Below, piece after piece: positions 29,795-29,866 of a DNA stretch of 36,891 bases. Where the stretch lies: the IMG/VR virus record IMGVR_UViG_3300011245_000003, positions 1 to 36,891 of that record. One strand, written 5' to 3'. This stretch comes from a virus. The notes below the pieces were generated by a model that ran no database searches, was not told the DNA's origin, and saw only the letters and a program-made list of their open reading frames with translations. The number at the start of each line of letters is the position of its first letter. Within the stretch, counting starts at the first letter, position 1. The position numbers and the translations under genes are program-made.

Positions 29795-29866
29795 TTACTT
29801 GGTTGCGATATACATTGTTACTTCAAAACCAAATCTCATCTCAGTGTATTCAGGTTTAGACCACAT
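29795..29866 (-). CDS. pqqA-like: PqqA-like peptide (PQQ precursor)
   Basis: A 23-residue peptide starting [11 protein letters not shown] and containing GFEVTMYIA. From my knowledge of the family it matches bacterial PqqA in length and in nearly all conserved positions: W2, K4-P5, R11, G13, E15 and Y19 with the E-V-T-x-Y spacing. In the PQQ pathway PqqE, helped by PqqD, cross-links exactly this Glu and Tyr. AGGAA lies before the ATG and the stop overlaps the ribosome binding site of the fibre gene, so it is likely translated. No pqqB, C, D, E or F is in the window, so any PQQ made would rely on host enzymes. It could instead be a decoy or an unrelated use of the peptide. Confidence 0.8.
   Translation of the reverse strand: [23 protein letters not shown]

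What the first reader, a model, noticed from the sequence alone, without database searches (positions are those of the whole stretch)
29795..29866. A phage-encoded PqqA-like precursor peptide between capsid terminator and tail fibre
The 23-residue ORF has the length, the W2/K4P5/R11/G13 framework and the Glu15...Tyr19 (E-V-T-x-Y) pair of bacterial PqqA, the peptide that PqqE cross-links to make the redox cofactor PQQ. It has its own ribosome binding site, and its stop codon sits in the binding site of the fibre gene. No other pqq gene is present, so the phage would be adding substrate to a host pathway, competing for it, or using the peptide otherwise. Because it sits in the late structural operon it would be made in large amounts. 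That is unlike typical metabolic genes, which are early.
Basis: partly seen in the sequence, partly recalled or inferred. Interest (0 to 1): 0.9.

Follow-up and report, generated by a model that had tools for sequence, protein, structure and literature searches.

The report
Phage-carried PQQ precursor peptide gene
This virus carries a real 23-residue copy of PqqA, the peptide that bacteria use up one-for-one to make the redox cofactor PQQ, and many unrelated viruses, notably those of methanol-eating bacteria, turn out to carry the same mostly unannotated gene without any of the enzymes that process it.

Summary
Minus-strand 29866..29795 encodes [23 protein letters not shown], a PqqA (PF08042 42.6 bits, cut-off 21.1; equivalog TIGR02107 47.2 bits, cut-off 20) with its own ribosome-binding site, between the capsid-gene terminator and the tail-fibre gene. 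No pqqB/C/D/E lies in the window. Seven of eight viral loci with capsid protein at least 84% identical keep pqqA in this slot; none at 79% or less has it. pN/pS is 0.13 in the clade. It belongs to something larger: nine Methylophilales phage records and at least 145 IMG/VR contigs, in about 48 gene neighbourhoods, carry solitary pqqA, usually unannotated. E15 and Y19 are invariant in all 120 loci found with a pattern that did not specify them, while residue 18 varies. No viral locus has another pqq gene. Best explanation: the phage supplies the one consumed component of PQQ synthesis, keeping methanol/alcohol oxidation going in infected cells; this functional step is inferred. One precedent exists (Lake Baikal Methylophilaceae phage, PMC7678222). 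New are the breadth, repeated acquisition, precursor-only design and purifying selection. The host is probably a TMED22-like marine betaproteobacterium (inferred from PqqA type and GC only).

The parts
29795..29866 (-). pqqA, 23-residue PQQ precursor peptide [23 protein letters not shown]
29873..29878 (-). ribosome-binding site AAAGGA of pqqA, 6 nt before the ATG
   Evidence: sequence; 139 of 146 viral pqqA have such a core
29913..29939 (-). terminator-like hairpin (11 pairs) after the major capsid gene, upstream of pqqA; kept in the pqqA-bearing relatives
29867..29909 (-). short leader; its distal part aligns with the end of a small ORF that lies behind a glutamine riboswitch in relatives L129, L134, L135, L137; riboswitch and ORF start are absent here
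28304..29785 (-). tail fibre gene just downstream of pqqA; its binding site overlaps the pqqA stop
29952..30884 (-). major capsid (head) protein gene upstream

Best explanation
This is a genuine pqqA gene of bacterial origin carried by a podovirus as an auxiliary metabolic gene. Shown by sequence: a complete PqqA with both residues that become cross-linked (E15, Y19), with start signals, conserved in its clade under purifying selection, and no PQQ enzymes in the phage. Inferred: during infection the peptide is bound by host PqqD, cross-linked by host PqqE and finished by host PqqB and PqqC into PQQ. A 72-bp gene is thus enough to keep PQQ supply, and with it PQQ-dependent methanol or alcohol dehydrogenase activity, going in the infected cell.
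For: PqqA family membership. 7 of the 8 closest relatives keep it in the same slot; the eighth (L133) has the slot empty. pN/pS 0.13 in the clade and 0.19 over 132 distinct viral genes. E15 and Y19 invariant in all 120 loci found with a pattern blind to them, while M18 becomes L or A and V16 becomes I. 44 further viral contigs with a G-M-E type also all keep Y19. Solitary pqqA recurs in unrelated phages of PQQ-using methylotrophs: Melnitz, Venkman, MEP301, MEP401/402, P19250A, and in about 48 neighbourhood clusters of varied phage genes. Related podoviruses L042, L068, L107 carry an OM43-type pqqA at another site. 54 of 159 viral pqqA loci encode a peptide identical to one in a sampled bacterial genome. 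Hosts multiply pqqA themselves: 185 of 187 Methylophilaceae genomes have it, mean 4, up to 12 copies. The nearest bacterial PqqA (TMED22, 2 differences) lies in a genome with PqqE and PQQ alcohol dehydrogenases. A review of earlier work in PMC9851590 reports that added PqqA is converted to PQQ by cell extract at 70-80%, and its own data show a methylotroph with five pqqA copies strongly expressing a stand-alone one.
Against: No expression or biochemical data for any phage PqqA. The host of this phage is not established: its capsid gene was not found in 17 genomes of the TMED22 family. A terminator precedes pqqA, so its expression level is unknown. OM43 culture medium contained added PQQ in one phage study, so dependence on own synthesis during infection is not shown. 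In one Acetobacter study pqqAB overexpression raised PQQ by only 29% while pqqABCDE raised it eightfold (PMC7936290), so precursor is not always the limiting part.
Confidence: 0.75

Rival explanations
1. Decoy: the phage peptide occupies host PqqD/PqqE or competes with host PqqA and thereby lowers PQQ or changes host metabolism without being turned into PQQ.
For: No enzymes in the phage; the sequence cannot tell substrate from inhibitor.
Against: A decoy does not need both cross-linked side chains, yet E15 and Y19 are invariant in all viral copies examined, and a third of the viral loci encode a peptide identical to a bacterial one.
Confidence: 0.08
2. The ORF matters as a leader for the fibre gene (translational coupling through the overlapping stop and binding site), and the peptide itself is incidental.
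For: Stop codon overlaps the fibre gene's binding site in the window and its closest relatives.
Against: Amino-acid-level purifying selection; the same peptide stands at unrelated sites in other phages, antisense to both annotated neighbours in Venkman and MEP301; relatives without pqqA keep a fibre gene with its own binding site.
Confidence: 0.04
3. Passenger: pqqA is picked up often because hosts hold many copies, and is neutral to the phage.
For: Hosts carry up to 12 copies, which raises the chance of capture; 54 of 159 viral loci encode a peptide identical to a bacterial one.
Against: pN/pS 0.13-0.19 with pS 0.42-0.61, so the genes have been kept for long under constraint; 139 of 146 keep ribosome-binding sites against 10% of random ATGs.
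Confidence: 0.06
4. The peptide is precursor to another product: host PqqE cross-links it but the phage uses the modified peptide for something other than PQQ (signal, regulator, inhibitor).
For: Not excluded by sequence; conservation of E15/Y19 would fit any PqqE-dependent product.
Against: Closeness to bacterial PqqA over the whole length; no phage-encoded modifying enzyme conserved with it was seen.
Confidence: 0.07

Closest known systems
Bacterial PqqA (PF08042 / TIGR02107)
   Same: Length, framework, E15 and Y19; scores about twice both curated cut-offs; 2 residues differ from a TMED22 betaproteobacterial copy
   Different: Carried by a phage, not next to pqqBCDE, placed between capsid and fibre genes
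PqqA of Lake Baikal Methylophilaceae phage population VP_266 (PMC7678222)
   Same: Phage-encoded PqqA in a virus assigned to methylotrophs; same proposed purpose
   Different: That T4-like virus also encodes methanol dehydrogenase; the present phage is a small podovirus with pqqA alone, and the paper reports one case
Auxiliary metabolic genes of marine phages in general
   Same: Bacterial-type gene expected to support host metabolism during infection
   Different: Encodes a consumable precursor peptide, not an enzyme, and here lies in the late region

Membership tests
PqqA (PF08042 / TIGR02107) | Score above the curated cut-off over the whole model | tested here: met
   42.6 vs 21.1 bits, profile 1-19 of 19; 47.2 vs 20 bits, 1-21 of 21
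PqqA (PF08042 / TIGR02107) | Conserved Glu and Tyr in E-x-x-x-Y spacing | tested here: met
   E15 and Y19 present and invariant in relatives
PqqA (PF08042 / TIGR02107) | Serves as substrate of PqqE/PqqD and precursor of PQQ | not testable with these tools
   Needs biochemistry
PqqA (PF08042 / TIGR02107) | Neighbourhood with pqqB-E (common in bacteria but not defining, stand-alone copies are frequent) | tested here: not met
   No pqqB-E in the window or any viral locus; 45 of 119 bacterial loci have them within the fetched stretch, and hosts also hold stand-alone copies
Phage auxiliary metabolic gene | On a genuine phage genome | tested here: met
   Terminase, portal, capsid, DNA polymerase, primase-helicase
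Phage auxiliary metabolic gene | Retained by selection | tested here: met
   pN/pS 0.13 in the clade, 0.19 overall
Phage auxiliary metabolic gene | Expressed in infection and changes host metabolism | not testable with these tools
   No expression data

The most novel reading that the evidence does not exclude
Supplying only the consumed precursor of a ribosomally encoded cofactor is a general, repeatedly evolved phage strategy in PQQ-making bacteria (methylotrophs and probably alphaproteobacteria), overlooked because 23-residue genes escape annotation, and PQQ supply limits phage yield in these hosts.
Probability: 0.4. Interest if true: 0.78.

Novelty: new variant of a known kind. Interest (0 to 1): 0.64.

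Why it matters
If the peptide is used as inferred, phages of abundant ocean and lake methylotrophs help control the cofactor that methanol oxidation depends on, with a gene of only 72 bases. It shows a design in which the phage supplies only what is consumed and borrows the enzymes. It also shows a gap in phage annotation: in five isolate records the match is unannotated and in Melnitz and one podovirus it is overlaid by a hypothetical CDS on the other strand. The claim can be tested in existing OM43 phage-host cultures.

Tried and rejected
PHROGs has no model that hits the peptide. Looking for the capsid gene in TMED22-family genomes as host evidence found nothing, and the window has no tRNA. 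Loose single-linkage clustering merged mosaic phages, so a stricter one was used; a few contigs entered twice (e.g. L077 and L131), so 156 loci is slightly high. Whether every Methylophilales phage has pqqA was not settled: MEP431-434 exist as names in the taxonomy but no such records were found by trying neighbouring accessions, and HIM624-A is a partial genome. Pfam has no family for the short basic ORF upstream of pqqA in relatives. One regex hit in L201 is not PqqA.

Full report
Observation. The minus strand of the window at 29866..29795 encodes [23 protein letters not shown] followed by TAA. It scores 42.6 bits against Pfam PqqA (cut-off 21.1) and 47.2 bits against the NCBIfam equivalog TIGR02107 (cut-off 20), each over the whole model. 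AAAGGA ends 6 nt ahead of its ATG, its stop overlaps the fibre gene's binding site, and an 11-pair hairpin with a T-rich tail separates it from the major capsid gene. The window is a phage: terminase, portal, major head protein, internal virion protein, primase-helicase, DNA polymerase and ribonucleotide reductase are recognised by PHROGs. No isolate in the phage collection is close (capsid below 60% identity to all). tblastn with PqqB, C, D and E found none in the window.

Relatives with the same slot. Using the capsid protein, 80 IMG/VR loci were fetched. Of the eight with capsid identity of 84% or more, seven have pqqA after the terminator and before the fibre gene; none of the 72 at 79% or less has it (about ten of these end too soon to tell). 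In L133, L138, L139 and others the slot is empty: terminator, binding site, fibre gene; in others it holds a different small ORF. So in this lineage pqqA is confined to one clade, in a variable slot. In four relatives (L129, L134, L135, L137) and in L232 a glutamine riboswitch (RF01739) lies in front of pqqA; in the aligned L129, L134 and L137, and in L135, a short basic ORF follows it whose end reaches the start of pqqA. The window keeps only sequence aligning with the tail of that ORF.

Selection. Among seven distinct pqqA genes of the clade pN/pS is 0.13, and 0.19 over 132 distinct viral genes. Every one has E15 and Y19, whereas residue 18 changes from M to L or A and residue 16 from V to I. 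The two Tyr codons at position 19 are used about equally, 67 TAC and 65 TAT, so its invariance is not recent shared descent of one codon.

A wider phenomenon. tblastn of the peptide against 50,697 phage records hits nine Methylophilales or Methylophilaceae phage records (MEP301, MEP401, MEP402, Venkman, P19250A and four Melnitz), one uncultured podovirus, and two 'Acinetobacter phage' contigs that are set aside as bacterial. In five of the isolate records the match carries no annotation; in Melnitz and the uncultured podovirus the CDS there runs on the opposite strand. A pattern for the G-M-E type gave 44 more, all PqqA-like, many resembling alphaproteobacterial PqqA; four representatives tested pass the Pfam cut-off. 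No viral locus has pqqB-E, while 45 of 119 bacterial loci fetched by a PqqA pattern do. 139 of 146 viral pqqA genes have a Shine-Dalgarno core, against 10% of random ATGs. About 156 viral loci fall into about 48 neighbourhood clusters, whose largest neighbouring proteins match portal, polymerase, helicase, head, tail-fibre and methyltransferase families of phages. The number of clusters depends on threshold and contig length and is not a count of acquisitions. But the window shares none or one neighbouring gene with each isolate, and podoviruses related to it through terminase and portal (L042, L068, L107) carry an OM43-type pqqA at a different site, which is most simply read as a separate acquisition.

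Host. The nearest bacterial PqqA found is in Betaproteobacteria bacterium TMED22 (L310: [23 protein letters not shown], two differences), GC 0.44 there against 0.40 for the window, while the OM43 loci and several OM43 phages are near 0.33-0.36. That genome has two pqqA, pqqB, PqqE and PQQ alcohol dehydrogenases over the cut-off. This is an inference: the capsid gene was not found in that family.

Mechanism. In Methylophilaceae 185 of 187 genomes have pqqA, on average four copies and up to twelve: hosts themselves multiply this one gene. PMC9851590 cites conversion of added PqqA to PQQ by cell extract and shows a methylotroph expressing a stand-alone pqqA copy strongly. From established pathway knowledge, PqqE cross-links Glu and Tyr of PqqA with PqqD as chaperone, and each PQQ uses up one PqqA. 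The simplest reading is supply of the consumed precursor. Shown: identity, conservation, absence of the enzymes, recurrence. Inferred: processing by the host, effect on PQQ and on methanol oxidation, benefit to the phage. The late position suggests late expression, but the terminator upstream makes the amount uncertain. In Venkman and MEP301 the gene is antisense to both annotated neighbours, and in P19250A it lies at a convergent junction, so a late operon is not the general rule.

What is known. A Lake Baikal study reported PqqA in one Methylophilaceae phage population together with methanol dehydrogenase (PMC7678222). The papers on MEP301, MEP401/402 and Melnitz do not mention phage PqqA. 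In the literature held here no report of the wide distribution was found; many subscription journals and preprints are not covered, so prior reports elsewhere are possible.

Noticed in passing
L129 5983-6029, L134 2359-2406, L135 2114-2161, L137 1108-1154, L232 4405-4451 (-): Glutamine riboswitch (RF01739) shortly upstream of pqqA in relatives of the window phage, with a short basic ORF (about 31-38 aa) between in at least four of them; lost in the window. It could tie expression of pqqA to glutamine.
   Followed up: partly
L364-L407: Viral contigs with G-M-E-type PqqA (e.g. MSWNAPKITEVCVGMEINCYACAEL), many resembling alphaproteobacterial PqqA, also without pqqB-E: the phenomenon may reach beyond methylotroph phages.
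   Followed up: partly
L128 (CAKLQF020000010.1): GenBank record labelled Acinetobacter phage MD-2021a holds pqqBCDE, ppk and fur and looks like bacterial chromosome.
   Followed up: partly
L127 4961-5056 and L123 2067-2195: Hypothetical CDS annotated on the strand opposite to pqqA in Melnitz and in the Manatee Spring podovirus are probably miscalls over pqqA.
   Followed up: no
L042 4656, L068 1788, L107 3911: Podoviruses sharing terminase and portal with the window carry a different pqqA type at another site, with GC near that of OM43: the pqqA type may track the host.
   Followed up: partly
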